Assembly: GCA_946699065.1 (NCBI GenBank)
Contig: CAMPDV010000077.1
Location: 620,001 to 684,000 of the forward strand
Source of the DNA: Loxodes magnus
Lineage: Eukaryota; Ciliophora; Karyorelictea; Loxodida; Loxodidae
DNA: 64,000 bases
Reading direction: 5' to 3'
Shown: positions 18,988-64,000 of the stretch, piece by piece
Numbering within the stretch: the first letter of the stretch is position 1
Layout of the letters: every line of letters begins with the position of its first letter
Notes under the pieces: generated by a model
What the model saw: only the letters and a program-made list of their open reading frames with translations
Databases searched by the model: none
What the model was told of the DNA's origin: nothing
Made by a program: the position numbers and the translations under genes

Positions 18988-21574
18988 ATTATTGATAGCT
19001 TCATATTCCAATCCTTATTAGATAACTTATAAAATTATTTCAAGAACTTCTATAAGTTTATTACGATTGTTAACTAATGATATCAATAATATAATTTGAT
19101 AAATATAAATAAATAAAATGAAATACAAAATAAAAAATAGTATAAAATTAAGTAAATTTAGCCTATCTTAAACTTCAAATTCGTAACTAAAAACTGTAAA
19201 TATATTTACAATTCAACATATACCAGTACTACTATGACAAAATATCCTATTACTGATATTATTAAAATTGCTATAAAAGTAAATTGTTTAGATAACTTCT
19301 ATGTATTTATATCAGAATGATTATATCAATAAAATTAGTTTAACATTTTGAAAATTAGAAATTTATAACAATTTTTATTAGCAATATTCTTTTTTAGTAT
19401 TAAGATTTCTCTATCTATTTTTGTAACGCTTAATTGATCAGTGAATGGTATTATTTTATTTTAAATTCGATATAATATATGTATTTTAATCTTTATTTTC
19501 ATTTTTTTATGTTTTTTAAGACTTAATTATTATTTTTTTAATTCAAGAATTCCTTTTTAAATAATTTTTCATTAGTTCATTTAAAAAATGATATAGTTTA
19601 TTAATATACAAGTCAGATATGTTAATAAAATTATGTTTATTGTTATTCCTATGCTTATGATCGAATTTATGTTATTTTTTTATTATGCTTACAATTTCTT
19701 AATAATGATATTCAAAGAAAGATTTTACTTTTAATTTTTCTCTTTTTAATATATCTAATTTTTTAAAAGTTTAAACTATTTAATGATAGTTTTTATTGTT
19801 TAAATTAATTTTTTAAATAATAATATTTTTAACTTTACTAATAATGCGTTTTTTAACCAACTTTTTAATCAATTTTTTATTTATATATTATGAAGATTTG
19901 CTCTTAATAGAATGGAAGTAATTACATTAAAAATTTAATTTTTTAATTCTAAAATGTTGCTATTTTCCTAAATAAGAAATTTAAAATATCTGATTCAATT
20001 TAGTTATATAATATGTCTTTATAAATTTTATAAGCACGAAAAAGGATAAAATTTAGATTTAAAATAATTTAAAAGCTTTTAAGCAATATAACTATATCAA
20101 ATAAAGATATTAATTGGTAAATATTGGTTTAATTATTTGCTTCTTTATAAAAAATAAGAGCTTATTTTTTTAAATTACTATAAAATATTTTTAGAGCTTT
20201 ATATTATGAAAAGCTTAAACAATCTAATAAATAAGTAATAGAAATTTGAAAATATTAGTTTCAACAATTAAAATAAGGATTAAAGATTTGACACAATAAA
20301 AACTAAAAGAGATACAAAAATGTTGAAGAAGATAAAATATTATAGTGAAATAGAATTTCACTTAAGTAATTGATAAAAATGATTATTTAAAATTTTTATT
20401 TGATTTAGTTTAAAAATTATTAAAACTGAAATTAAAATTATATATTTTTAATTTTTGTAATTCGTAATAAATAAAAATAATTACAATTATAAATAATATT
20501 TTCTTAGAAATAAAGAATAATTTTCTCTAAAAGTTATAAAATAAGAAAACAATCTTATAAAGAGAAACTGCTCTTATCAACTCTAGTATTTTAGATTAAA
20601 AAATATACTAAAATAATAAATTATTTTAAAGAAGTATAATTTCAGAAGATATATTATAATTTCAATTTAATAATATATGCATTTAGTAGGCAACTTCCAT
20701 TATAAAATGATTATCTTCTAAAAAAGAAAATCTTAAAGAAGATAAAGAATAATGAACAACATTAATGTAATAATTCTTATTATATAAACCAAATAATAAT
20801 TGATTATAATAAAATAATTTTTTTAACTTGTCAATTTAATAAAATTATGTAAACATTTAAGAAATAATTATATAAAATGAAAAAGAAAAGGTATAATTTA
20901 GATTTATAAAATGTAGCATTCTCTAAAATTAATGCTAATAAGAAAATAAATATTATAATTAGGCTAAAAATATGCATTATTAAAAAAGAAATATAAAAAA
21001 GGTAATATAAATAAGCATTCTATTTTTTTATTTAATAGAGTTTATAAAACAATAAATTAAGAATAATTTAAACTTATATAACTAATATAATTGCATCATT
21101 TTATGTATCTAATTAATGTTTTATAGATCTTAAGAATTAAAAAAAATTCAGAATAATAATAATTTACCACCAGAAAATTAACAATTATTTCATCTTTTTT
21201 ACCGTAAATCTAGTAAGCATAATTTTATTTTAAGATAAATTTGCTAAGGAAAAATATATTAAGCAAAAAAGAAGGTTATTAAGTCATAAATATTAGAGAA
21301 AATTTCTGCTCAAGCAAATAAATAAAATTTTAGATTAATGAAAAACGAATTATCGTAGGATAACTACTAATTTTGTTTCTATCTTAAAGATAAAAATTCT
21401 TTAATTACAAAAGCCTAAAGGATTTAAGAATCTGTTAAGATTACAGAAAGGTTCATTAACTAGAAAATTAAATAAATAAATTAAAGAAAAAATGTAATCT
21501 TAATATTTAGAGCATGCAGATTATTCGTAAAAGTATTTTTTAATAATGATTGGAATATGAAATTATAAATAAAA
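18988..21574. other. AT-rich spacer without a recognisable gene
   Basis: About 2.6 kb of extremely A+T-rich sequence dominated by poly-A/T and TAT runs. No frame on either strand shows the G-starting codon bias seen in the neighbouring genes. I see no RNA gene, tandem array or transposase motif. It may be intergenic DNA or the interior of a degenerate element bounded by the two inverted-repeat arms. Confidence 0.6.
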
Positions 21575-21924
21575 TGTAAATAGAAAAAGTGGAAAAATAA
21601 TAATAAAATAAATCAGTGTAGTTGGTAAAATTAAAAAAAATACTCACTTAAATTAATTACTAAAATTCCTGAAAAAAGGAATCGAATATCGTCTGACAAA
21701 ATAAACTGTAAAAGACTAAGATGTTTTGAAGTTCGAAGAAGATAAAAATTAAAGAATTTTAAAAGCATTATTAAGATTGAATTATTTATCAGATATTGCT
21801 ACAGAAGATCTGAGTCTCAACAAACATCCTAAAAAGTACAAAGCGGAAAACCAGTAGAAATCTGTCCAGAAGCAGATTGGAAATAAAGAGTCTATTAGTT
21901 TTAAAGCATTTCTTGGCTTTAAAA
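21575..21924. repeat. Right arm of the 0.35-kb inverted repeat (truncated gene copy)
   Basis: An inverted copy of 18640-18987. On the plus strand it encodes KKGIEYRLTKQTVKDQDVL onward to FKAFLGF, the first about 85 codons of the gene at 17343-18893. After 21924 the similarity stops and AT-rich DNA follows, so this is a 5' fragment. The start-codon position differs between the arms: the left has ATG, the right reads CTG. Confidence 0.85.
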
Positions 21925-23694
21925 TTTAAAATTTTCTATATTAAGATGTTTTTTAGTAAACTAAGGCTTTATCTAATTTTACTTCGAATATTTTTTGTTT
22001 AATATATGAATAAACATGTATTTTAGATTGAAACATAATTTAATATTTGATTTAAAAAAATTTAATTTTATTTATTATTAAATGGATTTTTATAACACTA
22101 AATTTGATCTTAAAATATGTAAAATCTAATTGATTTTCCAATATTTTTAAATAGTAAATATAACTTACCATTTTCTTAAAACTATCGTAATTTTTAAATA
22201 GAATTTGTATTTATTATCTTTATTATTAAATATATTTATAGATTTGTAAATTTTTTATTTTATAAGCACTTGGATTTATAAAGAAATATTTAAAAATATT
22301 AAACTATTTTAAAAAAATTCATTTTTTTCAAGTTCTTGCTAATTTATAATGATTTTATTTAAGGAAATTATGCTTAGTTATGCATAATTTCAATATTCAT
22401 AAATGAAAATTATTATTTACTATAATAAATAAAAATATATTAAATTTATTTAATTAGATATTTTTTCAATTTTCCTCTTTTATTTTTTTACTGTATAGAT
22501 AAAATTTTTATTTTCTTTTGAGTAATAAAATATAAAAAATAGCTTTTTATTATTTTTATTCTTAATTTCTTATAAATATATAATATCATCATATTTTTAT
22601 AAAATTAAGAATATATTAAATTTACTAATAATGTATCCTACATTTATTTCTCAATATTTTGCAAATATATCCAGCTATAAAAAATCCTTATTTATTAATA
22701 TTGTAAGTATTTCTGGTATTTTCATCTATTTCTTATTGAATTTTTAATTTTATAACTTATTGAAAATCTCACTTTAAATAGCTAATTTCATATTATTTTT
22801 TTAGTTTCTTGACTTTAATTTAAAAATGACTAATCCTAGAGCAACTTAATATGTTTGTTACTTTTTAAATAATGTAATGTACTTTTATGTATAAATAATA
22901 CATAATTTTCCTAATTATATTTTTATTTGACTATACATAAACTAATATTAATTATCTAAGTTAACATACTTTAACATGACTAGAACATTATTAAAATAAT
23001 TTATTTCTGATTAAATTAAATTTAGCAACTCCTATATCTGCTTATTATAATTACTTTAATTTACTTAATTTATCATTTAATAGTTTTACATACTATAATT
23101 AGATAAAACTCTTAATTATATAAAATTGCTAATAATTAATTTTAAACATAGAAATTAAATTTCCTTACATTTTCTAACTAACTAGCATTGAATATTTGTA
23201 AAAGAAAATAAAGGAGCAAGTGATTACAATTATATGGATATATTATTTCTAATCGGATTATAAATATATTTTTAAATAATAAAAAATGATTTTAGAGAAA
23301 TATTATTAAATTCTTTAAAGAATAATATAAAGTTTGTATAGACAAGAGTTGATAAAATATACAAAAATATAATTAATCTTATTGAGTACATTATAACTAA
23401 GGTTCCTATATAATGCTATTTATTATTGCTTTTTTATAAATTTTATTTTATATAAAAGTTAGATTTAAATAATTATCCAAATTTTAAGTATTTTATTATA
23501 ATCAATCTTAAACTTATTTTCTACTTTAAATATTTAGATTTCAAATATCTTATAAATATATTCATTGCGCTATTTTCAAAATTTTATATGTCTATCAAAT
23601 ATAAATTGCAAATACTTAAAAAATTGATTAATTATACTAAATTCGCTAATCTAAAATCTTTGTGACTCTTCTTTATTAAAAAAAGCTGATTTGC
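21925..23694. other. AT-rich region, no gene seen
   Basis: About 1.8 kb of A+T-rich sequence with long T and A runs and no frame with coding character on either strand. No known repeat or RNA motif was recognised. Confidence 0.55.
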
Positions 23695-30913: not shown

Positions 30914-33145
30914 AACTTTATAAAAATCGATCTAAATAGTCAATAAGAATTAATTTGATTTATAAAATTAGTTCTACTAATCAAATTATATTCAAAACGT
31001 ACCAGTTAAAGACGAAAAATAAGATATTTTGAGAATTAAAAAAATTTCCAATAACTGATTAGAGATTTAATCATAATTCCATTAAAAAGCTTTAGATAAA
31101 GACTAATTTTGAATAATAAAAATTCTATTTAACCGTTACGCTCATCATTAGTAATAGAAATAAATATAAATAAAATCTATAAATATTTGCATTTTGAATA
31201 ATATCATACTGGTTTTTATATTTAAATCATTGAGATTTTTTTATTTTGATTTATTATTTAATGTTCCAGTAAATTCTTTATTAAAACAAAATTAGATATA
31301 CATTGGAATTTTAAAGAATTTATTAATTTTAATAAATTTTGCTCATCTTAAATATGAAGTAAAATATAAAGATTTGCTAGCACAATGGATTCTAAATATT
31401 ATTATAAAAAAAAGGCGGAAAGGAAAAAAGCAAATAAAAAATTATAGAAATTTTTGAAAATAAATTAAGCTAAATGAATACTAGACAGGATAATATTTTT
31501 TAAATGAAATAAAAATAATCAATAATCAATAAAAATATAAGAGTTTATTTAATTAAAATAGTTAGTTGTGAATAATATTGAAAAAAAAAATATATGAAAT
31601 ACTGAAAATTAAGAGTGAGAATTAATCATATTTATATTTATCTTATTATTACTTCAAAAGACATATAATTTTTTTTCTTAAAAATTTTTACTTTTTATAA
31701 AAATAGAATAATTATTATTAAAATTGAGAAATTCATTGCCATCAAATTCATAATTTTTTAAGTAAGTTATATGATTGCATGTTTAAAAAAACTCCAAATA
31801 CTTTTTCTAATTTGATTTTAAATAGTTAAATTTGGTAAAAAATTGAATAAGATGAAACAGGATAGAATAATAAAAATCCTAAAAATTAAAAAATGCTTCT
31901 AATTACCAGAATTTTACAAAAAATTAGTTTCAAATTTTGAATAAAAAAATTAAACAAATTGATTCATATATAGAACCTAAAATATATTAGATTAAATCAG
32001 TATAAATAAAAGTTTTGATAACTTAAAAATAATTTAAATTAGATTAAAAGAAAATAATTTAAATAACTTTTGCTTTTCATTAGATTCTGAATTTATTATA
32101 AATTATAATTGAGATTTATAAGAAACAGAAAAAGATTTAAAAAATAATAAATTAATATTAATATTAATGATTACTATTAAGGGATTTCGTTCAAAAAAAC
32201 TTAATTTAATTTTGTAAATTTATTTAAAAATGGTATCAATATTTCCTTATAAAAAATATATTTTATATCTTAAAAACTAAATAAAAAATAATATATTTGG
32301 TACTAAGTCTTTCTTGAGTATAGCTTTACTTTTCCATAATGAACTTATCTATTCTGTGACTTCGAGAAAAGCCTATAATTTCTGTTTGAAATTAAGTTAT
32401 GCTATAAAAAAATTTAAGTTTCTATCCACGAATTTATAAAGGAATGAAGCTTAAATAGTGTCATGCTTCATTAATAGAAAGTATGTCAACTTTGTATTAC
32501 AGAGTAAACTGCTAAATACTTAATTGTTTAGTGGAAATTGAATTCATATTATAATAAGTAAACTTTAATGCGTTTTTATTTTATCCTCCTTTAAGAATTT
32601 TGTCATATATTCAGAGAACTTTTGACCATTTTAAATTTAGATAAGAAGCAAACTTGGAGTTTATCTTATTGTATTTCTATAGTTCATTATAAAGAATAAA
32701 GTCAATGAGTCATATTCTTATAATAATTATCTATCTATTTTAATTGGTACTGAATTTCTTAAGGTACAATTTAGTATACAAGACAAAGTAATAAACCTAT
32801 TTTCTATTGTTGTGAGTGATTCTATTCTTCCATGGTTTGATCAAAGTATTGAACGAATTATAATTTTTAAAATTATACTTCTTTAATAAATCTTCAATAT
32901 CAATATTTTACAGTTTAAATTATGTTATGATGAGTCAAAAATCCTTAATTCATTTATGCTTCTTTTAAATTTCTCTTGCCATTTTGTGTTAGTATAGTCT
33001 AATAAGTAAAATGAATTTGAACTTAATCATTTTCGATATTTAATCTAATGTATCTCAGTTACAATTTTATTATCAATTTTATAGTTCATTTAATTAAATT
33101 GTCTAACTAGCTTAATTTTATTTTTAACATTTAGAAATTGACTGA
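30914..33145. repeat. Left arm of a 2.23-kb inverted repeat
   Basis: The reverse complement of 45050-47281, the same length (2232 bp) with roughly 99 % identity by eye. The few differences include two adjacent bases near 31012, one at 31483 and one near 31415. Similarity stops sharply at both ends. The arm contains the 3' part of the minus-strand gene that starts near 34530 and, from the outer side, the probable 3' part of the plus-strand gene at 30306. Confidence 0.92.
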
Positions 33146-44639: not shown

Positions 44640-47000
44640 ATATCAAAATTCTACATAAATCATATTGAAAACAATTGAATCAATCTTGTGATTAAGAAAC
44701 TAAAGAAAAAATGTACTAGTAAAATTAAAATAAGATTAATCTTAAGTAGAAGTAATATATAACAATTTCTAATCTGTAATTGATCACGTTTTTGACAGGT
44801 TTGCTTAAACTGAAGCTACTTTTTATCAAAAAAATTGTAGAGCTATAACTAAAATTAGTAACTAATAGCTTAATTTTTCCTTCTTAGAGTTATAATCTTA
44901 TATAAGTGAATGTAAAATTCAAAGAACTTTTAATTTTTTGAATATTTAATATAGTTAACTGATCAAAAAATTAATCGTGAAATTTAACTAAAAATATATG
45001 CTTTATGCAAGAATATTGAACATAAGAAATAAAAGAAAGAATATATGACTCAATCAATTTCTAAATGTTAAAAATAAAATTAAGCTAGTTAGACAATTTA
45101 ATTAAATGAACTATAAAATTGATAATAAAATTGTAACTGAGATACATTAGATTAAATATCGAAAATGATTAAGTTCAAATTCATTTTACTTATTAGACTA
45201 TACTAACACAAAATGGCAAGAGAAATTTAAAAGAAGCATAAATGAATTAAGGATTTTTGAGTCATCATAACATAATTTAAACTGTAAAATATTGATATTG
45301 AAGATTTATTAAAGAAGTATAATTTTAAAAATTATAATTCGTTCAATACTTTGATCAAACCATGGAAGAATAGAATCACTCACAACAATAGAAAATAGGT
45401 TTATTACTTTGTCTTGTATACTAAATTGTACCTTAAGAAATTCAGTACCAATTAAAATAGATAGATAATTATTATAAGAATATGACTCATTGACTTTATT
45501 CTTTATAATGAACTATAGAAATACAATAAGATAAACTCCAAGTTTGCTTCTTATCTAAATTTAAAATGGTCAAAAGTTCTCTGAATATATGACAAAATTC
45601 TTAAAGGAGGATAAAATAAAAACGCATTAAAGTTTACTTATTATAATATGAATTCAATTTCCACTAAACAATTAAGTATTTAGCAGTTTACTCTGTAATA
45701 CAAAGTTGACATACTTTCTATTAATGAAGCATGACACTATTTAAGCTTCATTCCTTTATAAATTCGTGGATAGAAACTTAAATTTTTTTATAGCATAACT
45801 TAATTTCAAACAGAAATTATAGGCTTTTCTCGAAGTCACAGAATAGATAAGTTCATTATGGAAAAGTAAAGCTATACTCAAGAAAGACTTAGTACCAAAT
45901 ATATTATTTTTTATTTAGTTTTTAAGATATAAAATATATTTTTTATAAGGAAATATTGATACCATTTTTAAATAAATTTACAAAATTAAATTAAGTTTTT
46001 TTGAACGAAATCCCTTAATAGTAATCATTAATATTAATATTAATTTATTATTTTTTAAATCTTTTTCTGTTTCTTATAAATCTCAATTATAATTTATAAT
46101 AAATTCAGAATCTAATGAAAAGCAAAAGTTATTTAAATTATTTTCTTTTAATCTAATTTAAATTATTTTTAAGTTATCAAAACTTTTATTTATACTGATT
46201 TAATCTAATATATTTTAGGTTCTATATATGAATCAATTTGTTTAATTTTTTTATTCAAAATTTGAAACTAATTTTTTGTAAAATTCTGGTAATTAGAAGC
46301 ATTTTTTAATTTTTAGGATTTTTATTATTCTATCCTGTTTCATCTTATTCAATTTTTTACCAAATTTAACTATTTAAAATCAAATTAGAAAAAGTATTTG
46401 GAGTTTTTTTAAACATGCAATCATATAACTTACTTAAAAAATTATGAATTTGATGGCAATGAATTTCTCAATTTTAATAATAATTATTCTATTTTTATAA
46501 AAAGTAAAAATTTTTAAGAAAAAAAATTATATGTCTTTTGAAGTAATAATAAGATAAATATAAATATGATTAATTCTCACTCTTAATTTTCAGTATTTCA
46601 TATATTTTCTTTTTCAATATTATTCACAACTAACTATTTTAATTAAATAAACTCTTATATTTTTATTGATTATTGATTATTTTTATTTCATTTAAAAAAT
46701 ATTATCCTGCCTAGTATTCATTTAGCTTAATTTATTTTCAAAAATTTCTATAATTTTTTATTTGCTTTTTTCCTTTCAGCCTTTTTTTTATAATAATATT
46801 TAGAATCCATTGTGCTAGCAAATCTTTATATTTTACTTCATATTTAAGATGAGCAAAATTTATTAAAATTAATAAATTCTTTAAAATTCCAATGTATATC
46901 TAATTTTGTTTTAATAAAGAATTTACTGGAACATTAAATAATAAATCAAAATAAAAAAATCTCAATGATTTAAATATAAAAACCAGTATGATATTATTCA
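44640..47000 (+). CDS. Paralogue of the gene at 32280-34530, sharing its 3' half
   Basis: Upstream of the arm, coding character reads NVLVKLKQDQSQVEVIYNNF, SVIDHVFDRFAQTEATFYQK, NCRAITKISNQQLNFSFLEL and YMLYARILNIRNKRKNIW. At 45050 it enters the repeat arm in frame with FLNVKNKIKLVRQFNQMNYK, the same sequence as in the left gene. The first half differs from the left gene, the second half is nearly identical. The end probably lies near 45915, where the left copy ends (about 32280), although the arm stays open beyond. No known domain. Confidence 0.45.
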
Positions 47001-47281
47001 AAATGCAAATATTTATAGATTTTATTTATATTTATTTCTATTACTAATGATGAGCGTAACGGTTAAATAGAATTTTTATTATTCAAAATTAGTCTTTATC
47101 TAAAGCTTTTTAATGGAATTATGATTAAATCTCTAATCAGTTATTGGAAATTTTTTTAATTCTCAAAATATCTTATTTTTAATCTTTAACTGGTACGTTT
47201 TGAATATAATTTGATTAGTAGAACTAATTTTATAAATCAAATTAATTCTTATTGACTATTTAGATCGATTTTTATAAAGTT
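45050..47281. repeat. Right arm of the 2.23-kb inverted repeat
   Basis: An inverted copy of 30914-33145. The outer edge at 47281 pairs with 30914 and the inner edge near 45050 with 33145. The enclosed segment, 33146-45049, is 11.9 kb and includes the LINE. No short direct duplication flanks the outer edges. Confidence 0.92.
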
Positions 47282-48144: not shown

Positions 48145-48178
48145 GAGCGCGTAGCACTCTCATTGGTGCGCAGCTCTT
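48145..48178. other. GC-rich imperfect palindrome
   Basis: AGAGCGCGTAGCAC ... GGTGCGCAGCTCT can form a stem with one bulge around a short loop. It is conspicuous in DNA that is otherwise about 80 % A+T. It could be a structured RNA element, a terminator-like hairpin or an element end. No flanking evidence decides. Confidence 0.4.
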
Positions 48179-48335
48179 TAAAAAAAATGTTTCATACTGA
48201 CAAGAATGTTTGTTACTGATAAAATTATCAGATACTGATAAACCTTGTTCAATACTGATATAATTTCAGAATACTCGTATCTTTAATACTTGTTGGAGGT
48301 CCAAGGACTCGGCAGGATTGTGTCTCATTGCATCA

Positions 48336-48550
48336 CCAAAGCAGAAGACGACATATGTCAATTATGGGTACTTAAATTCCTCACCTCTGATGAAGCTCGC
48401 AATATTATTTCTTTTTAGTTCCAGAATTAAAAATTAAAATAAGTCAGTGTCGAAGGTCAAACTAGCAGATGTTTCGAGGCCAAGCCAAAGCAGAGGAAGA
48501 CATAAATTCGATTATGGGTACTTAACTTCCCCAACCTCTGATGAAGATGA
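48336..48550. repeat. Two diverged direct copies, spaced 150 bp
   Basis: A segment of about 65 bp containing CAAAGCAGA, ATTATGGGTACTTAA and ACCTCTGATGAAG occurs at 48336-48400 and again at 48486-48551. The copies differ by several substitutions and small indels. The G+C content is above that of the flanks. No coding frame is convincing in either copy; it may be a small dispersed element. Confidence 0.6.
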
Positions 48551-48949
48551 CCTTGTTGCTCACCTTCGAACAATGAGCAAAGCAATTTAATATATATATA
48601 AAATAATAATATTTCAGAAAAACGTTTTATATGAAATGCATTATGGTAATAATATTCCATTAAGAATTATATTTAGAAATAATCCTTTTATATTTTATAT
48701 TTTAAACTCGTAGCATTGTACTATTAAAAATCTTGCAAACTCAATATAATATAATTAGATTTATTTCTTTTTATAATATTAAAAAATATTTATAAAGAAA
48801 ATTAATATAATCATTAGTTTGAATTACAAACATTTGAAAAAAGACTGTTTTGTTAAGTTGATTAATCTTTTTCAACTGCTTAAAAAAAAACAATTTTTTT
48901 AACTTAAAAATTATAATTCTCACATCTCTCATTAAGAGTTTTGTTTAGG

Positions 48950-49700: not shown

Positions 49701-50040
49701 GAAAGTAAAAATTACAAACAGTTTTGTTAGAGTAGAAATGCTCCATAAGTATTTAGGTCTTACAAAAGATAATTTTTTAATAAATTAAATAATTAAATAT
49801 AATGAAATTAAATTAAAATTATTTTAAAACTAAACTAAAAAAATCTACATATAATTGTCAGCTTAATAATTATTTAAGTCAATTAAAATCTTCAATAAAT
49901 TATCTTATTATCTCACAATCTTAAAGCTATTCTAATCTGAAATCTTATCTCAGAATTAATTTCATTATCTTCATATGTAAAAATTAAAATAGAAGATAAT
50001 TAAAATTAATTAATTAATTAATTAATTTCAACTAAAAAAG

Positions 50041-50335
50041 TTTTTGGATCGGAAACTCCTTTCCGATTGTGAGACCCGACGCTCTCTTTTTATGGAATAG
50101 CGGGGATATTCTGTTGTGCTCCAGGTACAGCTGCTAGGGAGCTCCATCGCTATGAGCAACCAGGATTCAAGCCCCTACCAAGACCGGATAATCTCAAAGA
50201 CAGTGTTCCCTTCAGAAAATGACTCAGACCAGGGACTTTCTCAGCGACAGGAAAGTAACTTGTTCCTAGCCATAATTCCAGAAAGTGTTGTCACTAAGGT
50301 CATTCTCAGCTCCCACCATCTTTTCAATTATTAAT
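50041..50335. mobile_element. GC-rich island, SINE-like or foreign fragment
   Basis: About 295 bp at roughly 50 % G+C in DNA of about 20 %. It starts with a perfect 8-bp hairpin, ATCGGAAA CTCC TTTCCGAT (50048-50067). The plus strand contains GATTCAAGCCC and the minus strand GGCTTGAATCC near 50166-50177, both close to a tRNA B-box, so a tRNA-derived SINE is possible. A 72-codon frame at 50116-50334 avoids reassigned codons altogether, unlike local genes, so it is probably not a native gene. Edges are AT-rich; an (ATTA)n run (50009-50027) abuts the left side. Confidence 0.4.
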
Positions 50336-51153
50336 GAAAATTAATTATTGCCTGTGATTGTTCAATAATATCAATTTTAATAAGAGAGTTATAAAAATTA
50401 AAGTTCATCTATGAAAAGAGTAGAAAACTTTGAAAAAAATTAAGAATAAAAAAGAAAAATTAGCAAGAAGAAATGCTTATATTTTCAGTTAAGCTTAAAT
50501 TAAATTAAAAACTGCTAAAAAATTGTTTATTTTTTAATATTTAAACATAATTCCGTTCGTAAATATAAGAATTGAAAATTTTTTGATTTTAAAAAAAAAT
50601 TTGATAACTTATTTTAAAAAAATCATGCAATAAAAAATGAAAAAGTTTATAAGCAAACTGAAGAAGTATAAAAGTAATCACATATAATTTTTTAAGATAT
50701 AAGGTTTGTAAAAGGTTTTAAAAATAAGGGTGGAGTAAAATGTTAAAATTATAAAGAGAAAAATTGAAAAGATGTATGCTTTGACTTAATTAAACGCATT
50801 TGATGTATAAAATATTCTTTTTACAAAAAAGGAAAATACTAAAAACTAAATAATATCTTATCATCTTTCGTATTATTATGCTTTTTATTTTAAAGAGAAC
50901 TTTTCTATATTTTTAATCGTCAAAACAAATTAGAACATGACTTAACTTATTTATAAAATTTTATACTAGTTTTCGGCGAAATATTTTGACAGCTTTTCTC
51001 AATATGTTAATAAATTTATACTATGAATTCGATCTTAGAATTAACAAGTAAAATTAAATAAAAAATTTTCGTAAAAATAAGATAAATCAAAAATTTATTT
51101 TGCTAAAAAAAATTCTAAAGGGCTACAATTTAAAGAAAAAAAGAAATATAACT
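50336..51153. other. AT-rich interval upstream of the WD40 array
   Basis: No convincing gene. An ATG at 51023 opens MNSILELTSKIKQKIFVKIR, but this frame is not the one of the WD40 units (it is off by one base), so it would need an intron or indel to be the true N-terminus. No promoter element can be assigned. Confidence 0.4.
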
Positions 51154-54100
51154 ATATCCAGTGATTAAGAGTTCATCGTATCGGGAAGTGCAGATTATAC
51201 GGTGAGACTATGGGACGTCAAGACAGGTACCTGTAAGACCACGAGTGGTCACACTAGTTGTTTATATGCTGTGGCTATATCCAGTGATTAAGAGTTCATC
51301 GTATCGGGAAGTGCAGATTATACGGTGAGACTATGGGACGTCAAGAATGGTACCTGTAAGACCATGAGTAGTCACACTAGTTATGTATCATCTGTGGCTA
51401 TATCCAGTAATTCCGAGTTCATCGTATCGGGAAGTGCAGATTAGACGGTGAGACTATGGGACGTCAAGACAGGTACCTGTAAGACCATGAGTAGTCACAC
51501 TAGTTATGTAAATGCTGTGGCTATATCCAGTGATTCAGAGTTCATCGTATCGGGAAGTCATGATTATACGGTGAGACTATGGGACGTCAAGACAGGTACC
51601 TGTAAGACCATGAGTAGTCACACTAGTTGTGTATATGCTGTGGCTATATCCAGTGATTAAGAGTTCATCGTATCGGGAAGTCATGTCTAGACGGTGAGAC
51701 TATGGGACGTCAAGAATGGTACCTGTAAGACCATGAGTAGTCACACTAGTTATGTATCATCTGTGGCTATATCCAGTAATTCAGAGTTCATCGTATCGGG
51801 AAGTCATGATTATACGGTGAGACTATGGGACGTCAAGACAGGTACCTGTAAGACCATGAGTAGTCACACTAGTTGTTTATATGCTGTGGCTATATCCAGT
51901 GATTAAGAGTTCATCGTATCGGGAAGTGCAGATTATACGGTGAGACTATGGGACGTCAAGAATGGTACCTGTAAGACCATGAGTAGTCACACTAGTTATG
52001 TATCATCTGTGGCTATATCCAGTAATTCCGAGTTCATCGTATCGGGAAGTGCAGATTAGACGGTGAGACTATGGGACGTCAAGACAGGTACCTGTAAGAC
52101 CATGAGTAGTCACACTAGTTGTTTATATGCTGTGGCTATATCCAGTGATTAAGAGTTCATCGTATCGGGAAGTGCAGATTAGACGGTGAGACTATGGGAC
52201 GTCAAGACAGGTACCTGTAAGACCATGAGTGGTCACACTAGTTGTTTATATGCTGTGGCTATATCCAGTGATTCCGAGTTCATCGTATCGGGAAGTGCAG
52301 ATTATACGGTGAGACTATGGGACGTCAAGACAGGTACCTGTAAGACCATGAGTGGTCACACTAGTTGTTTATATGCTGTGGCTATATCCAGTGATTCCGA
52401 GTTCATCGTATCGGGAAGTGCAGATTAGACGGTGAGACTATGGGACGTCAAGACAGGTACCTGTAAGACCATGAGTGGTCACACTAGTTGTTTATATGCT
52501 GTGGCTATATCCAGTGATTCCGAGTTCATCGTATCGGGAAGTGCAGATTATACGGTGAGACTATGGGACGTCAAGACAGGTACCTGTAAGACCATGAGTA
52601 GTCACACTAGTTGTTTATATGCTGTGGCTATATCCAGTGATTCAGAGTTCATCGTATCGGGAAGTAGAGATAATACGGTGAGACTATGGGACGTCAAGAC
52701 AGGTACCTGTAAGACCATGAGTGGTCACACTAGTTATGAATCATCTGTGGCTATATCCAGTGATTCCGAATTTATCGTATCGGGAAGTGCAGATTAGACG
52801 GTGAGACTATGGGACGTCAAGACAGGTACCTGTAAGACCACGAGTAGTCACACAGATTATGTATTATATGTGGCTATATCCAGTGATTCAGAGTTCATCG
52901 TATCGGGAAGTGCAGATTATACGGTGAGACTATGGGACGTCAAGACAGGTACCTGTAAGACCATGAGTAGTCACACTAGTTATGTAAATGCTGTGGCTAT
53001 ATCCAGTGATTCAGAGTTCATCGTATCGGGAAGTCATGATTATACGGTGAGACTATGGGACGTCAAGACAGGTACCTGTAAGACCATGAGTAGTCACACT
53101 AGTTGTGTATATGCTGTGGCTATATCCAGTGATTAAGAGTTCATCGTATCGGGAAGTCATGTCTAGACGGTGAGACTATGGGACGTCAAGAATGGTACCT
53201 GTAAGACCATGAGTAGTCACACTAGTTATGTATCATCTGTGGCTATATCCAGTAATTCAGAGTTCATCGTATCGGGAAGTCATGATTATACGGTGAGACT
53301 ATGGGACGTCAAGACAGGTACCTGTAAGACCATGAGTAGTCACACTAGTTGTTTATATGCTGTGGCTATATCCAGTGATTAAGAGTTCATCGTATCGGGA
53401 AGTGCAGATTATACGGTGAGACTATGGGACGTCAAGAATGGTACCTGTAAGACCATGAGTAGTCACACTAGTTATGTATCATCTGTGGCTATATCCAGTA
53501 ATTCCGAGTTCATCGTATCGGGAAGTGCAGATTAGACGGTGAGACTATGGGACGTCAAGACAGGTACCTGTAAGACCATGAGTAGTCACACTAGTTGTTT
53601 ATATGCTGTGGCTATATCCAGTGATTAAGAGTTCATCGTATCGGGAAGTGCAGATTAGACGGTGAGACTATGGGACGTCAAGACAGGTACCTGTAAGACC
53701 ATGAGTGGTCACACTAGTTGTTTATATGCTGTGGCTATATCCAGTGATTCAGAGTTCATCGTATCGGGAAGTGCAGATTATACGGTGAGACTATGGGACG
53801 TCAAGACAGGTACCTGTAAGACCATGAGTGGTCACACTAATGTTGTATATGCTGTGGCTATATCCAGTGATTCCGAGTTCATCGTATCGGGAAGTGCAGA
53901 TTATACGGTGAGACTATGGGACGTCAAGACAGGTACCTGTAAGACCATGAGTAGTCACACTAGTTGTTTATATGCTGTGGCTATATCCAGTGATTCAGAG
54001 TTCATCGTATCGGGAAGTGCAGATTATACGGTGAGACTATGGGACGTCAAGACAGGTACCTGTAAGACCATGAGTGGTCACACTAGTTGTTTATATGCTG

Positions 54101-57100
54101 TGGCTATATCCAGTGATTCCGAGTTTATCGTATCGGGAAGTGCAGATTAGACGGTGAGACTATGGGACGTCAAGACAGGTACCTGTAAGACCATGAGTGG
54201 TCACACTAGTTATGTATTATCTGTGGCTATATCCAGTGATTCAGAGTTCATCGTATCGGGAAGTGCAGATTATACGGTGAGACTATGGGACGTCAAGACA
54301 GGTACCTGTAAGACCATGAGTAGTCACACTAGTTGTTTATATGCTGTGGCTATATCCAGTGATTCAGAGTTCATCGTATCGGGAAGTGCAGATTATACGG
54401 TGAGACTATGGGACGTCAAGACAGGTACCTGTAAGACCATGAGTAGTCACACTAGATGTTGTATATGCTGTGGCTATATCCAGTGATTCAGAGTTCATCG
54501 TATCGGGAAGTGCAGATTATACGGTGAGACTATGGGACGTCAAGACAGGTACCTGTAAGACCATGAGTAGTCACACTAGTTGTTTATATGCTGTGGCTAT
54601 ATCCAGTGATTCCGAGTTCATCGTATCGGGAAGTGCAGATTATACGGTGAGACTATGGGACGTCAAGACAGGTACCTGTAAGACCATGAGTGGTCACACT
54701 AGTTGTTTATATGCTGTGGCTATATCCAGTGATTCAGAGTTCATCGTATCGGGAAGTGCAGATTATACGGTGAGACTATGGGACGTCAAGACAGGTACCT
54801 GTAAGACCATGAGTGGTCACACTAGTTGTTTATATGCTGTGGCTATATCCAGTGATTCCGAGTTCATCGTATCGGGAAGTGCAGATTAGACGGTGAGACT
54901 ATGGGACGTCAAGACAGGTACCTGTAAGACCATGAGTGGTCACACAGGTTATGTATGTGCTGTGGCTATATCCAGTGATTCAGAGTTCATCGTATCGGGA
55001 AGTGCAGATAATACGGTGAGACTATGGGACGTCAAGAATGGTACCTGTAAGACCATGAGTAGTCACACTAGTTATGTATCATCTGTGGCTATATCCAGTA
55101 ATTCAGAGTTCATCGTATCGGGAAGTCATGATTATACGGTGAGACTATGGGACGTCAAGACAGGTACCTGTAAGACCATGAGTAGTCACACTAGTTGTTT
55201 ATATGCTGTGGCTATATCCAGTGATTAAGAGTTCATCGTATCGGGAAGTGCAGATTATACGGTGAGACTATGGGACGTCAAGAATGGTACCTGTAAGACC
55301 ATGAGTAGTCACACTAGTTATGTATCATCTGTGGCTATATCCAGTGATTCCGAATTTATCGTATCGGGAAGTGCAGATTAGACGGTGAGACTATGGGACG
55401 TCAAGACAGGTACCTGTAAGACCATGAGTGGTCACACTAATGTTGTATATGCTGTGGCTATATCCAGTGATTCAGAGTTCATCGTATCGGGAAGTGCAGA
55501 TTATACGGTGAGACTATGGGACGTCAAGACAGGTACCTGTAAGACCACGAGTAGTCACACAGATTATGTATTATATGTGGCTATATCCAGTGATTCAGAG
55601 TTCATCGTATCGGGAAGTGCAGATTATACGGTGAGACTATGGGACGTCAAGACAGGTACCTGTAAGACCATGAGTAGTCACACTAGTTGTTTATATGCTG
55701 TGGCTATATCCAGTGATTCAGAGTTCATCGTATCGGGAAGTGCAGATTAGACGGTGAGACTATGGGACGTCAAGACAGGTACCTGTAAGACCATGAGTGG
55801 TCACACTAGTTGTTTATATGCTGTGGCTATATCCAGTGATTCCGAGTTCATCGTATCGGGAAGTCATGATTATACGGTGAGACTATGGGACGTCAAGACA
55901 GGTACCTGTAAGACCATGAGTGGTCACACAGGTTATGTATGTGCTGTGGCTATATCCAGTGATTCAGAGTTCATCGTATCGGGAAGTGCAGATAATACGG
56001 TGAGACTATGGGACGTCAAGACAGGTACCTGTAAGACCATGAGTAGTCACACTAGTTGTTTATATGCTGTGGCTATATCCAGTGATTCAGAGTTCATCGA
56101 ATCGGAAAGTTATGATTATACGGAGAGACTATGGGACTTCAAGACAGGTACCTGTAAGACCATGAGTGGTCACACTAATGTTGTATATGCTGTGGCTATA
56201 TCCATTGATTCCGAGTTTATCGTATCGGGAAGTGCAGATTAGACGGTGAGACTATGGGACGTCAAGACAGGTACCTGTAAGACCATGAGTGGTCACACTA
56301 GTTATGTATTATCTGTGGCTATATCCAGTGATTCAGAGTTCATCGTATCGGGAAGTGCAGATTATACGGTGAGACTATGGGACGTCAAGACAGGTACCTG
56401 TAAGACCATGAGTGGTCACACTAATGTTGTATATGCTGTGGCTATATCCAGTGATTCCGAGTTTATCGTATCGGGAAGTGCAGATTAGACGGTGAGACTA
56501 TGGGACGTCAAGACAGGTACCTGTAAGACCATGAGTAGTCACACTAGTTGTTTATATGCTGTGGCTATATCCAGTGATTCCGAGTTCATCGTATCGGGAA
56601 GTCATGATTATACGGTGAGACTATGGGACGTCAAGACAGGTACCTGTAAGACCATGAGTGGTCACACAGGTTATGTATGTGCTGTGGCTATATCCAGTGA
56701 TTCAGAGTTCATCGTATCGGGAAGTGCAGATTATACGGTGAGACTATGGGACGTCAAGACAGGTACCTGTAAGACCATGAGTAGTCACACTAGTTATTTA
56801 TATGCTGTGGCTATATCCAGTGATTCAGAGTTCATCGTATCGGGAAGTTAGATTATACGGTGAGACTATGGGACGTCAAGACAGGTACCTGTAAGACCAT
56901 GAGTAGTCACACTAGTTGTTTATATGCTGTGGCTATATCCAGTGATTCAGAGTTCATCGTATCGGGAAGTGCAGATTATACGGTGAGACTATGGGACGTC
57001 AAGACAGGTACCTGTAAGACCATGAGTAGTCACACTAGTTGTTTATATGCTGTGGCTATATCCAGTGATTCAGAGTTCATCGTATCGGGAAGTGCAGATT

Positions 57101-60100
57101 ATACGGTGAGACTATGGGACGTCAAGACAGGTACCTGTAAGACCATGAGTAGTCACACTAGTTGTTGTATATGCTGTGGCTATATCCAGTGATTCCGAGT
57201 TCATCGTATCGGGAAGTGCAGATTATACGGTGAGACTATGGGACGTCAAGACAGGTACCTGTAAGACCATGAGTAGTCACACTAGTTGTTGTATATGCTG
57301 TGGCTATATCCAGTGATTCAGAGTTCATCGTATCGGGAAGTCATGATCTAGACGGTGAGACTATGGGACGTCAAGACAGGTACCTGTAAGACCATGAGTA
57401 GTCACACTAGTTATGTATTATCTGTGGCTATATCCAGTGATTAAGAGTTCATCGTATCGGGAAGTGCAGATTAGACGGTGAGACTATGGGACGTCAAGAC
57501 AGGTACCTGTAAGACCATGAGTAGTCACACTAGTTGTTTATATGCTGTGGCTATATCCAGTGATTAAGAGTTCATCGTATCGGGAAGTGCAGATTATACG
57601 GTGAGACTATGGGACGTCAAGAATGGTACCTGTAAGACCATGAGTAGTCACACTAGTTATGTATCATCTGTGGCTATATCCAGTAATTCAGAGTTCATCG
57701 TATCGGGAAGTCATGATTATACGGTGAGACTATGGGACGTCAAGACAGGTACCTGTAAGACCATGAGTAGTCACACTAGTTGTTTATATGCTGTGGCTAT
57801 ATCCAGTGATTAAGAGTTCATCGTATCGGGAAGTGCAGATTATACGGTGAGACTATGGGACGTCAAGACAGGTACCTGTAAGACCATGAGTAGTCACACT
57901 AGTTATGTATCATCTGTGGCTATATCCAGTAATTCAGAGTTCATCGTATCGGGAAGTGCAGATTATACGGTGAGACTATGGGACGTCAAGACAGGTACCT
58001 GTAAGACCATGAGTGGTCACACTAGTTGTTTATATGCTGTGGCTATATCCAGTGATTCCGAGTTCATCGTATCGGGAAGTGCAGATTAGACGGTGAGACT
58101 ATGGGACGTCAAGACAGGTACCTGTAAGACCATGAGTGGTCACACTAGTTGTTTATATGCTGTGGCTATATCCAGTGATTCCGAGTTCATCGTATCGGGA
58201 AGTGCAGATTATACGGTGAGACTATGGGACGTCAAGACAGGTACCTGTAAGACCATGAGTAGTCACACTAGTTGTTTATATGCTGTGGCTATATCCAGTG
58301 ATTCAGAGTTCATCGTATCGGGAAGTAGAGATAATACGGTGAGACTATGGGACGTCAAGACAGGTACCTGTAAGACCATGAGTGGTCACACTAGTTATGA
58401 ATCATCTGTGGCTATATCCAGTGATTAAGAGTTCATCGTATCGGGAAGTGCAGATTATACGGTGAGACTATGGGACGTCAAGACAGGTACCTGTAAGACC
58501 ACGAGTAGTCACACAGATTATGTATTATATGTGGCTATATCCAGTGATTCAGAGTTCATCGTATCGGGAAGTGCAGATTATACGGTGAGACTATGGGACG
58601 TCAAGACAGGTACCTGTAAGACCATGAGTAGTCACACTAGTTGTTTATATGCTGTGGCTATATCCAGTGATTAAGAGTTCATCGTATCGGGAAGTGCAGA
58701 TTAGACGGTGAGACTATGGGACGTCAAGACAGGTACCTGTAAGACCATGAGTGGTCACACTAGTTGTTTATATGCTGTGGCTATATCCAGTGATTCAGAG
58801 TTCATCGTATCGGGAAGTGCAGATTATACGGTGAGACTATGGGACGTCAAGACAGGTACCTGTAAGACCATGAGTGGTCACACTAGTTGTTTATATGCTG
58901 TGGCTATATCCAGTGATTCCGAGTTCATCGTATCGGGAAGTGCAGATTAGACGGTGAGACTATGGGACGTCAAGACAGGTACCTGTAAGACCATGAGTGG
59001 TCACACTAGTTGTTTATATGCTGTGGCTATATCCAGTGATTCCGAGTTCATCGTATCGGGAAGTCATGATTATACGGTGAGACTATGGGACGTCAAGACA
59101 GGTACCTGTAAGACCATGAGTGGTCACACAGGTTATGTATGTGCTGTGGCTATATCCAGTGATTCAGAGTTCATCGTATCGGGAAGTAGAGATAATACGG
59201 TGAGACTATGGGACGTCAAGACAGGTACCTGTAAGACCATGAGTGGTCACACTAGTTATGAATCATCTGTGGCTATATCCAGTGATTCCGAGTTCATCGT
59301 ATCGGGAAGTGCAGATTAGACGGTGAGACTATGGGACGTCAAGACAGGTACCTGTAAGACCATGAGTAGTCACACTAGTTGTTTATATGCTGTGGCTATA
59401 TCCAGTGATTCAGAGTTCATCGTATCGGGAAGTAGAGATAATACGGTGAGACTATGGGACGTCAAGACAGGTACCTGTAAGACCATGAGTAGTCACACTA
59501 GTTGTTTATATGCTGTGGCTATATCCAGTGATTCAGAGTTCATCGTATCGGGAAGTAGAGATAATACGGTGAGACTATGGGACGTCAAGACAGGTACCTG
59601 TAAGACCATGAGTGGTCACACTAGTTATGAATCATCTGTGGCTATATCCAGTGATTCCGAATTTATCGTATCGGGAAGTGCAGATTAGACGGTGAGACTA
59701 TGGGACGTCAAGACAGGTACCTGTAAGACCACGAGTAGTCACACAGATTATGTATTATATGTGGCTATATCCAGTGATTCAGAGTTCATCGTATCGGGAA
59801 GTGCAGATTATACGGTGAGACTATGGGACGTCAAGACAGGTACCTGTAAGACCATGAGTAGTCACACTAGTTGTTTATATGCTGTGGCTATATCCAGTGA
59901 TTAAGAGTTCATCGTATCGGGAAGTCATGATTATACGGTGAGACTATGGGACGTCAAGACAGGTACCTGTAAGACCATGAGTGGTCACACAGGTTATGTA
60001 TGTGCTGTGGCTATATCCAGTGATTCAGAGTTCATCGTATCGGGAAGTAGAGATAATACGGTGAGACTATGGGACGTCAAGACAGGTACCTGTAAGACCA

Positions 60101-63100
60101 TGAGTGGTCACACTAGTTATGAATCATCTGTGGCTATATCCAGTGATTCCGAGTTCATCGTATCGGGAAGTGCAGATTAGACGGTGAGACTATGGGACGT
60201 CAAGACAGGTACCTGTAAGACCATGAGTAGTCACACTAGTTGTTTATATGCTGTGGCTATATCCAGTGATTCCGAGTTCATCGTATCGGGAAGTGCAGAT
60301 TATACGGTGAGACTATGGGACGTCAAGACAGGTACCTGTAAGACCATGAGTAGTCACACTAGTTGTTTATATGCTGTGGCTATATCCAGTGATTCAGAGT
60401 TCATCGTATCGGGAAGTAGAGATAATACGGTGAGACTATGGGACGTCAAGACAGGTACCTGTAAGACCATGAGTGGTCACACTAGTTATGAATCATCTGT
60501 GGCTATATCCAGTGATTCCGAATTTATCGTATCGGGAAGTGCAGATTAGACGGTGAGACTATGGGACGTCAAGACAGGTACCTGTAAGACCACGAGTAGT
60601 CACACAGATTATGTATTATATGTGGCTATATCCAGTGATTCAGAGTTCATCGTATCGGGAAGTGCAGATTATACGGTGAGACTATGGGACGTCAAGACAG
60701 GTACCTGTAAGACCATGAGTAGTCACACTAGTTGTTTATATGCTGTGGCTATATCCAGTGATTAAGAGTTCATCGTATCGGGAAGTGCAGATTAGACGGT
60801 GAGACTATGGGACGTCAAGACAGGTACCTGTAAGACCATGAGTGGTCACACTAGTTGTTTATATGCTGTGGCTATATCCAGTGATTCAGAGTTCATCGTA
60901 TCGGGAAGTGCAGATTATACGGTGAGACTATGGGACGTCAAGACAGGTACCTGTAAGACCATGAGTGGTCACACTAGTTGTTTATATGCTGTGGCTATAT
61001 CCAGTGATTCCGAGTTCATCGTATCGGGAAGTGCAGATTAGACGGTGAGACTATGGGACGTCAAGACAGGTACCTGTAAGACCATGAGTGGTCACACTAG
61101 TTGTTTATATGCTGTGGCTATATCCAGTGATTCCGAGTTCATCGTATCGGGAAGTAGAGATAATACGGTGAGACTATGGGACGTCAAGACAGGTACCTGT
61201 AAGACCATGAGTGGTCACACTAGTTATGAATCATCTGTGGCTATATCCAGTGATTCCGAGTTCATCGTATCGGGAAGTGCAGATTAGACGGTGAGACTAT
61301 GGGACGTCAAGACAGGTACCTGTAAGACCATGAGTAGTCACACTAGTTGTTTATATGCTGTGGCTATATCCAGTGATTCCGAGTTCATCGTATCGGGAAG
61401 TAGAGATAATACGGTGAGACTATGGGATGTCAAGACAGGTACCTGTAAGACCATGAGTAGTCACACTAGTTGTTTATATGCTGTGGCTATATCCAGTGAT
61501 TCAGAGTTCATTGTATCGGGAAGTCATGATTATACGGTGAGACTATGGGACGTCAAGACAGGTACCTGTAAGACCATGAGTGGTCACACTAGTTATGTAT
61601 GATCTGTGGCTATATCCAGTGATTAAGAGTTCATCGTATCGGGAAGTGCAGATTATACGGTGAGACTATGGGACGTCAAGACAGGTACCTGTAAGACCAT
61701 GAGTAGTCACACTAGTTGTTTATATGCTGTGGCTATATCCAGTGATTCAGAGTTCATCGTATCGGTTAGTGGAGATTATACGGTGAGACTATGGGACGTC
61801 AAGACAGGTACCTGTAAGACCATGAGTGGTCACACTAGTTATGTATATGCTGTGGCTATATCCAGTGATTCCGAGTTCATCGTATCGGTTAGTGGAGATT
61901 ATACGGTGAGACTATGGGACGTCAAGACAGGTACCTGTAAGACATGAGTGGTCACACTAGTTGTTTATATGCTGTGGCTATATCCAGTGATTCCGAGTTC
62001 ATCGTATCGGGAAGTCATGATTATACGGTGAGACTATGGGACGTCAAGACAGGTACCTGTAAGACCATGAGTGGTCACACAGGTTATGTATGTGCTGTGG
62101 CTATATCCAGTGATTAAGAGTTCATCGTATCGGGAAGTCATGTCTAGACGGTGAGACTATGGGACGTCAAGAATGGTACCTGTAAGACCATGAGTAGTCA
62201 CACTAGTTATGTATCATCTGTGGCTATATCCAGTGATTCAGAGTTCATCGTATCGGTTAGTGGAGATTATACGGTGAGACTATGGGACGTCAAGACAGGT
62301 ACCTGTAAGACCATGAGTAGTCACACTAGTTGTTTATATGCTGTGGCTATATCCAGTGATTCCGAGTTCATCGTATCGGTTAGTGGAGATTATACGGTGA
62401 GACTATGGGACGTCAAGACAGGTACCTGTAAGACCATGAGTAGTCACACTAGTTGTTTATATGCTGTGGCTATATCCAGTGATTCCGAGTTCATCGTATC
62501 GGGAAGTGCAGATTATACGGTGAGACTATGGGACGTCAAGACAGGTACCTGTAAGACCATGAGTAGTCACACTAGTTGTTTATATGCTGTGGCTATATCC
62601 AGTGATTAAGAGTTCATCGTATCGGGAAGTCATGTCTAGACGGTGAGACTATGGGACGTCAAGAATGGTACCTGTAAGACCATGAGTAGTCACACTAGTT
62701 ATGTATCATGCTGTGGCTATATCCAGTGATTCAGAGTTCATCGTATCGGGAAGTGCAGATTATACGGTGAGACTATGGGACGTCAAGACAGGTACCTGTA
62801 AGACCATGAGTAGTCACACTAGTTGTTTATATGCTGTGGCTATATCCAGTGATTCCGAGTTCATCGTATCGGGAAGTGCAGATTATACGGTGAGACTATG
62901 GGACGTCAAGACAGGTACCTGTAAGACCATGAGTAGTCACACTAGTTGTTTATATGCTGTGGCTATATCCAGTGATTAAGAGTTCATCGTATCGGGAAGT
63001 CATGTCTAGACGGTGAGACTATGGGACGTCAAGAATGGTACCTGTAAGACCATGAGTAGTCACACTAGTTATGTATCATCTGTGGCTATATCCAGTAATT

Positions 63101-64000
63101 CAGAGTTCATCGTATCGGGAAGTCATGATTATACGGTGAGACTATGGGACGTCAAGACAGGTACCTGTAAGACCATGAGTAGTCACACTAGTTGTTTATA
63201 TGCTGTGGCTATATCCAGTGATTAAGAGTTCATCGTATCGGGAAGTGCAGATTATACGGTGAGACTATGGGACGTCAAGAATGGTACCTGTAAGACCATG
63301 AGTAGTCACACTAGTTATGTATCATCTGTGGCTATATCCAGTAATTCAGAGTTCATCGTATCGGGAAGTCATGATTATACGGTGAGACTATGGGACGTCA
63401 AGACAGGTACCTGTAAGACCATGAGTAGTCACACTAGTTGTTTATATGCTGTGGCTATATCCAGTGATTAAGAGTTCATCGTATCGGGAAGTGCAGATTA
63501 TACGGTGAGACTATGGGACGTCAAGAATGGTACCTGTAAGACCATGAGTAGTCACACTAGTTATGTATCATCTGTGGCTATATCCAGTAATTCAGAGTTC
63601 ATCGTATCGGGAAGTGCAGATTATACGGTGAGACTATGGGACGTCAAGACAGGTACCTGTAAGACCATGAGTGGTCACACTAGTTGTTTATATGCTGTGG
63701 CTATATCCAGTGATTCCGAGTTCATCGTATCGGGAAGTGCAGATTAGACGGTGAGACTATGGGACGTCAAGACAGGTACCTGTAAGACCATGAGTGGTCA
63801 CACTAGTTGTTTATATGCTGTGGCTATATCCAGTGATTCCGAGTTCATCGTATCGGGAAGTGCAGATTATACGGTGAGACTATGGGACGTCAAGACAGGT
63901 ACCTGTAAGACCATGAGTAGTCACACTAGTTGTTTATATGCTGTGGCTATATCCAGTGATTCAGAGTTCATCGTATCGGGAAGTAGAGATAATACGGTGA
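51154..64000 (+). CDS. Giant WD40-repeat protein (partial, runs off the window)
   Basis: Continuous tandem 41-residue units of the form HTSCLYAVAISSDSEFIVSG, S-x-D-x-TVRLWDVKTGTCKTM. The GH/SH dipeptide, the Asp before TVRLWD and the terminal WD are classical WD40 features, so the product should fold as a chain of beta-propellers: 104 units would give about 15 seven-bladed propellers. TAA fills the SSDQEF position and TAG the ADQTVRL position in many units, as Gln. One TGA (about 61602) reads as Trp. Single-base indels occur near 54455 (+1), 56848 (-1), 57165, 57288 and 57345 (+1 each), 61942 (-1) and 62709 (+1); each group restores the frame. No start codon in frame and no other domain is seen upstream. 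It may be a gene, a gene interior or a repeat-rich pseudogene. Confidence 0.8.
51201..63995 (+). repeat. 104 tandem copies of a 123-bp WD40-coding unit
   Basis: The GTGAGACTATGGGACGTC core recurs every 123 bp. From the first at 51201 to the last at 63996 is 104 x 123 + 3 bp, the 3 extra bases being the net of the indels. The units are nearly identical outside two variable sites: codons after CACAC(T/A) and codons after TCGGGAAGT. One unit (about 56097-56215) is unusually diverged. A block of 12 units (1476 bp) is repeated: 51448-52900 equals 52924-54376 in order of variants. A 7-unit (861 bp) shift matches 59692 with 60553. Confidence 0.95.

What the first reader, a model, noticed from the sequence alone, without database searches (positions are those of the whole stretch)
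51154..64000. A 104-unit, high-identity WD40 array running off the window
Units of 123 bp keep near-perfect identity over 12.8 kb, far beyond the 7-14 repeats of ordinary WD40 proteins. If translated it would be a chain of about 15 propellers. Such length and homogeneity need active homogenisation.
Basis: seen in the sequence. Interest (0 to 1): 0.85.

Follow-up and report, generated by a model that had tools for sequence, protein, structure and literature searches.

The report
Giant ciliate WD40 array, variable blades
A stretch of what looks like ciliate DNA holds over a hundred almost identical copies of one protein building block, nearly frozen except at residues on the face that such proteins use for binding; it resembles the sensor part of fungal self/non-self recognition genes, but its reading frame is broken and nothing shows that it is expressed.

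Summary
From 51152 to the window end lie 104 head-to-tail WD40 units of 123 bp; 97 of 103 spacings are exactly 123 nt, mean pairwise identity 93.5%. They read as long protein only with TAA/TAG as glutamine, the ciliate code. Two corrections. As assembled it is not one protein: six units change length and one carries TGA; the longest open runs hold 35, 27 and 19 units. And variation is not spread evenly: it concentrates in unit codons 19-23 and 38-40. Codons 20, 22, 38 and 40, four of the five most variable, match by my mapping the codons reported under positive selection in Podospora hnwd genes. Seven units are modelled as a seven-bladed propeller with these residues in the d-a and b-c turns. 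Block duplications and shuffled variants indicate recombination. Best reading: a highly repetitive WD40 array under concerted evolution, built like a diversifying binding platform, possibly now a pseudogene or silent locus. No NACHT or effector domain was found in the ORFs searched. Pooled bacterial WD40 units vary at the same positions, so an immune role is inference.

The parts
51152..64000 (+). WD40 array, 104 units of 123 bp (41 aa), continues beyond the window
51152..54486 (+). open run 1 in the ciliate code, 27 units; the frame is open upstream to 50941 without a recognisable N-terminal domain
54443..56863 (+). open run 2, 19 units, in the frame reached after the +1 change in unit 26
57193..61602 (+). 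longest open run, 1469 aa, 35 units; ends at the TGA in unit 84
62686..64000 (+). last open run, at least 10 units, off the window end
54400..54523 (+). unit 26, 124 nt: length change in the variable segment; equals a prefix of one unit plus a suffix of another
56738..56859 (+). unit 45, 122 nt, one base fewer near codon 38 (by inspection)
57106..57354 (+). units 48 and 49, 124 and 125 nt: gains near codons 20-21 (both) and 39 (unit 49, by inspection)
61537..61659 (+). unit 84 with an in-frame TGA at codon 22
61906..62027 (+). unit 87, 122 nt, one base fewer near codon 13, outside the variable segments
62643..62766 (+). unit 93, 124 nt, chimera-like junction near codon 22
52327..53187 (+). seven-unit stretch modelled as a seven-bladed propeller (pLDDT 90.1, pTM 0.88)

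Best explanation
The array is a highly repetitive WD40 coding array of a ciliate, homogenised by unequal exchange or gene conversion between units while residues on the binding face of each blade stay diverse. Seven open units can fold into a seven-bladed propeller whose top face is a mosaic of eleven d-a variants (one carrying the TGA) and eight b-c variants. Each recombination event thus reshuffles a binding surface without touching the scaffold, as in the sensor domains of fungal hnwd NLR genes. Shown: WD40 identity, reading frame in the ciliate code, homogeneity, position of the variability, block duplications, mixing of variants, predicted fold. Inferred: that exchange is the homogenising process, that diversity is or was selected for binding, and that the present locus is a pseudogene, a silent member of a family, or a gene with consensus errors rather than one long expressed protein.
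For: Frame: in table 6 the WD40 frame has no TGA in 90 of 91 unit steps; the two other forward frames average 1.9 and 1.1 per unit, the reverse frames 0.7, 1.2 and 1.9. Four neighbouring TPR/kinase ORFs hold 60 TAA and 6 TAG codons (they lack TGA by the way they were chosen). Variability: codons 22, 38, 40, 21 and 20 have the highest residue entropy; the four codons taken from the fungal papers are 4 of the top 5 (P 4.9e-5), and their mask scores 5.56 against at most 3.05 at the 40 other offsets. Codons 19-23 and 38-40 hold 20 amino-acid alternatives and no synonymous one, the other 33 codons 11 and 6. Variable nucleotide sites: 18 of 24 inside that cluster, 18 of 99 outside. Exchange: 26 combinations of 11 x 8 variants; repeated triplets of units 10 against a shuffle mean of 0.05. 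Fold: 28 strands, pLDDT 90.1, variable residues at the d-a loop and start of strand a and in the b-c turn; first PDB match TM 0.94. [quoted passage not shown]
Against: Six length-changed units and one TGA break the frame. Of 47 ORF segments outside the array run through Pfam (many overlap in other frames, and not all 87 ORFs were run), none matched NACHT, NB-ARC or HET. Bacterial WD40 units pooled from eight loci also vary most at these positions (ranks 5, 6, 1, 2 of 29; all four in the top five in 3 of the 8 loci), so position alone does not show immune-type selection. The synonymous test on the four preset codons alone is weak (12:0 against 19:6, one-sided P 0.076); the P of 0.005 for eight codons uses a cluster chosen after seeing the data. 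Outside the cluster 11:6 shows no strong purifying selection. Fungal codon 8 is conserved, but its match here, codon 21, varies. My mapping to fungal codons was not made on a fungal sequence in any call. No transcript, reads or second individual were available.
Confidence: 0.6

Rival explanations
1. Decayed germline satellite: a WD40 fragment was amplified as a minisatellite, perhaps in micronucleus-limited DNA, and is never translated; homogeneity reflects recent amplification.
For: Abrupt start in AT-rich DNA without a start domain; broken frames; mobile-element fragments and inverted repeats in the same window; no strong purifying selection outside the variable codons (11:6).
Against: Variation is concentrated at binding-face codons and changes the amino acid there in every alternative, which a neutral satellite would not keep unless inherited from a functional source; open runs of 35 and 27 units remain.
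Confidence: 0.22
2. Assembly effect: a real but different array, expanded, collapsed or chimerised by the assembler, with frame changes produced by consensus mixing of different units. Not exclusive of the other readings.
For: By my reading six of seven length events lie in the variable segments (nominal P 3e-4 for a cluster chosen after seeing the data), where consensus mixing would create them; fungal hnwd arrays are not recovered reliably from short reads (PMC12222747, abstract and introduction).
Against: Exact block duplicates of 300 nt or more have many different spacings, such as 2, 7, 12, 17 and 46 units, unlike a simple assembler loop; 51 distinct units.
Confidence: 0.13
3. An ordinary long WD40 scaffold gene whose surface residues vary simply because they are unconstrained.
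For: Pooled bacterial WD40 units vary at the same positions; PMC5587647 section 11 reports hotspot diversity in highly repetitive WD40 proteins.
Against: Alternative segments differing at several bases are shared between distant units, and no synonymous alternative occurs at the face codons, which suggests more than relaxed constraint.
Confidence: 0.15

Closest known systems
Podospora anserina hnwd genes (het-d, het-e, het-r), WD40 sensor domain of NACHT-type NLRs
   Same: Near-identical tandem WD40 units, concerted evolution, variability at codons that match 7, 9, 25 and 27 with the same spacing by my mapping, new combinations by shuffling
   Different: Fungal units are 42 aa and functional alleles usually have 11; here 41 aa and at least 104 units; no HET or NACHT domain found, frame broken, ciliate code. 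Fungal codon 8 is conserved; the matching codon 21 varies here (L/V/E)
Highly-Repetitive WD40 proteins (PMC5587647)
   Same: Internal identity of at least 0.7 and diversity at hotspot sites; reported from bacteria, fungi and protists
   Different: Many more units than the solved example 2ymu (577 aa); frame interrupted
Tetrahymena tandem 90-bp-exon LRR genes (PMC6564038)
   Same: Ciliate tandem arrays proposed to change by unequal crossing over in TE-rich germline regions (section 22); WD40, TPR and kinase are named among domains of species-specific genes
   Different: LRR and exon/intron based, not one continuous exon-like array
Paramecium WD40/TPR tandem repeats (PMC5405496, PMC3464196)
   Same: WD40 and TPR tandem repeats reported in ciliate DNA (passages)
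   Different: Mentioned only in passing in the passages seen; no unit number or hotspot analysis there

Membership tests
WD40 repeat (PF00400) | Profile match and beta-propeller fold | tested here: met
   27 stretches, E 9.6e-244; seven-unit model pLDDT 90.1, PDB TM 0.94
Highly-Repetitive WD40 protein (PMC5587647) | At least six of eight contiguous repeats with all pairwise identities 0.7 or more | tested here: met
   62 of 62 eight-unit windows without a length change, ungapped identity
Highly-Repetitive WD40 protein (PMC5587647) | One continuous protein | tested here: not met
   Seven open runs of three or more units, longest 35 units; assembly errors cannot be excluded
hnwd-type NLR | NACHT and effector domain upstream of WD40 | tested here: not met
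   No such hit among 47 ORF segments outside the array; short exons or untested ORFs could hold one
hnwd-type NLR | High variability at codons 7, 9, 25, 27 | tested here: met
   Unit codons 20, 22, 38, 40 are four of the top five; not specific to NLRs,
hnwd-type NLR | Positive selection on those codons | tested here: inconclusive
   Within-array alternatives 12:0 against 19:6, P 0.076; no alleles available
Ciliate-code nuclear gene | TAA/TAG read as Q, TGA absent from the frame | tested here: met
   with one TGA in 97 full units; longest standard-code run of the array 163 aa

The most novel reading that the evidence does not exclude
The locus is a germline archive of WD40 blade variants: a long, largely untranslated store from which expressed recognition genes of the ciliate receive new binding-face segments by gene conversion, a sequence-donor array comparable in logic to silent antigen cassettes.
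Probability: 0.08. Interest if true: 0.88.

Novelty: new member of a known kind. Interest (0 to 1): 0.5.

Why it matters
If the array or its relatives are expressed, a single-celled ciliate would carry the sensor design that fungi use for self/non-self recognition: frozen blades with a reshuffled binding face, with about ten times as many units as the usual 11 of the fungal genes. It would make testable whether ciliates have a repeat-shuffling recognition system and where in the germline it is diversified.

Tried and rejected
Rejected: one protein of 15 propellers. Rejected: a dominant 7-unit period; shared blocks lie 7, 12, 17, 46 and other numbers of units apart. Inconclusive: a 14-unit model (pLDDT 73.3, pTM 0.59), so how long chains pack is unknown. 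Control: the 40 other offsets of the four-codon mask. Control against my reading: nine bacterial loci were fetched; eight gave at least five units (64 in all), the ninth (L009) gave four and was left out of the pool; the mask ranks 5, 6, 1, 2 of 29 in the pool, but all four fall in the top five in only L002, L003 and L008. A first, stricter extraction kept only one locus and was replaced. Source: no genome held; a viral-contig scan found nothing; Tetrahymena breakage and telomere motifs, both recalled, gave no match with up to 2 mismatches; the species is not established. No tRNA or Rfam hit. No other copy of the unit in 1-51151 (best nucleotide match 12 bases, best protein E 0.32). Horizontal transfer as cause of the high GC was considered: the nine bacterial loci found by short peptide patterns are 34-43% identical, which names no donor; GC-biased conversion is equally open.

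Full report
What is there. Tandem Repeats Finder reports 51152-64000 as 104.4 copies of a 123-bp unit, 93% matches. An anchor scan gives 104 units; of 103 spacings 97 are exactly 123 nt, three 124, two 122 and one 125. Mean pairwise identity of the 97 full-length units is 93.5% in DNA (84.6-100%) and 87.5% in protein (70.7-100%). There are 51 distinct sequences among 103 units. The array reaches the window end, so its true length is unknown. It is a GC island: 39-45% in each kilobase from 51 kb on, against 14-31% before.

Reading frame. Under the standard code the longest open run of the array is 163 aa. With TAA and TAG as glutamine (table 6) the WD40 frame has no TGA in 90 of 91 unit steps, while the two other forward frames average 1.9 and 1.1 per unit. 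The same code opens a TPR array and a kinase fragment on the minus strand at 698-5184; four ORFs there hold 60 TAA and 6 TAG codons (they lack TGA because they were picked between stops). I therefore take the source to be a ciliate or another organism with this code; the species is not established. As assembled the array is not one protein: six units change length and unit 84 has a TGA. Open runs of three or more units hold 27, 19, 3, 35, 3, 6 and at least 10 units. The shifts cancel in pairs (units 26/45, 48/49, 87/93), but by my own estimate three such pairs are not improbable by chance, and each stretch between them holds at least one TGA in the original frame.

Where the units differ. Residue entropy per codon is highest at 22, 38, 40, 21, 20, 23, 16 and 19; 18 of 41 codons show a single codon in all 97 units, silent sites included (counted). 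[quoted passage not shown] PMC2873952 passages). Mapped by the general WD40 motif and my recollection of the fungal unit, not by an alignment in any call, these are codons 20, 22, 38 and 40 here, with the same spacing 2, 16, 2. They are four of the five most variable (P 4.9e-5), and the mask scores 5.56 at that offset against at most 3.05 at the other 40. The seven classification positions of PMC12222747 (passages), mapped the same way, give five in the top eight (P 0.0014). Fungal codon 8 is conserved, but its match here, codon 21, varies. At codons 19-23 and 38-40 there are 20 amino-acid alternatives and no synonymous one; elsewhere 11 and 6 (one-sided Fisher 0.005, for a cluster defined after seeing the data; for the four preset codons 12:0 against 19:6, P 0.076; the TGA is left out of these counts). 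Of nucleotide sites 18 of 24 vary inside the cluster and 18 of 99 outside.

Control against over-reading. In eight of the nine bacterial loci fetched as relatives (the ninth gave four units and was dropped), 64 WD40 units pooled, the same four positions rank 5, 6, 1 and 2 of 29. Locus by locus all four are in the top five in three of eight (L002, L003, L008) and lower in the rest. Hotspot diversity on a conserved frame is described for highly repetitive WD40 proteins, a set of 305 (PMC5587647 section 11). So these positions tend to vary in WD40 proteins generally. What stands out here is the contrast between scaffold and face (mean entropy 1.39 against 0.22), which one bacterial locus (L008, 1.65 against 0.26, five units) matches.

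Structure. AlphaFold2 on seven units (52327-53187, nine array rows) gives 28 strands, pLDDT 90.1, pTM 0.88. Codons 19-23 are model residues 13-17 in the first repeat (d-a loop and start of strand a) and codons 38-40 are residues 32-34 (b-c turn). I did not inspect coordinates; that both lie on the top face rests on the description. The first PDB match is the WD40 domain of a Thermomonospora protein, TM 0.94, with many WDR5 entries close behind; the highly repetitive 2ymu is the best sequence match. Fourteen units gave only pLDDT 73.3 and pTM 0.59, so packing of longer chains is open.

Dynamics. Unit order is far from random: 24 repeated neighbour pairs against a shuffle mean of 2.5 (maximum 9 in 5000) and 10 repeated triplets against 0.05; exact duplicates reach 830 nt at a spacing of 12 units, 606 nt at 17, 485 nt at 7 and 472 nt at 46. 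Eleven d-a variants (one with the TGA) and eight b-c variants occur in 26 combinations. Four of the six length-changed units (26, 48, 87, 93) are exactly a prefix of one existing unit plus a suffix of another with 0-4 bases of overlap; for unit 87 a plain loss of one base explains this as well. By my reading six of seven length events fall in the variable segments (nominal P 3e-4). Real exchange or consensus mixing in assembly could both do this.

Setting and meaning. The array starts abruptly in AT-rich DNA; the frame is open upstream to 50941 without a recognisable domain (one search showed the best 25 of 46 families for this run, all propeller or WD40 models). Of 47 ORF segments outside the array searched in Pfam, which overlap and are not all the ORFs, only the TPR, kinase, endonuclease and reverse transcriptase fragments reached the curated cut-off. 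The endonuclease and reverse transcriptase fragments lie between inverted arms of 2232 nt. Tetrahymena work proposes TE-rich germline regions as centres of repeat-gene innovation by unequal crossing over (PMC6564038 section 22) and lists WD40, TPR and kinase among the domains of species-specific genes (passages). That fits this window but does not prove that it is germline DNA. Paramecium papers mention WD40 and TPR tandem repeats in passing.

Verdict. A real, very long member of the highly repetitive WD40 kind, with the face variability and repeat shuffling of the fungal recognition genes, in an apparently ciliate genome. It works, or its source worked, like a recombining binding platform; it is not shown to be an NLR and, as assembled, does not encode one protein. 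Eight searches of open-access papers, of which I saw the listings and in four of them only the top of the list or a capped share, showed no paper on such an array in a ciliate; this is no proof of absence from print.

Noticed in passing
30914-33145 and 45050-47281: Inverted arms of 2232 nt, 99.7-100% complementary, 11.9 kb apart, enclosing endonuclease and reverse transcriptase fragments: a large young mobile element, a segmental inversion or an assembly foldback.
   Followed up: partly
18633-18990 and 21572-21929: Second inverted pair, 358 nt, 98% complementary, 2.6 kb apart; no transposase found by Pfam in three ORFs between the arms.
   Followed up: partly
698-5184, minus strand: TPR array of 102-bp units (73-76% matches) in three open segments, followed by a protein kinase fragment in a separate segment; looks like a TPR-kinase gene with introns or frame breaks.
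   Followed up: partly
48150-48600 and 50030-50330: Two short GC-rich islands in AT-rich DNA upstream of the array, without Pfam match in the ORFs tested there; the first has an internal 62-nt repeat and a hairpin-like start; unidentified.
   Followed up: partly
56000-56245 (units 39 and 40): Two neighbouring units hold the five amino-acid changes seen in a single copy at otherwise near-fixed codons (V1E, V6F, S28I, V34E, G36E): a local patch of errors or decay.
   Followed up: no
51152-64000: GC at third codon positions of 43% against 14-24% in four neighbouring TPR/kinase ORFs: foreign origin or GC-biased conversion.
   Followed up: partly
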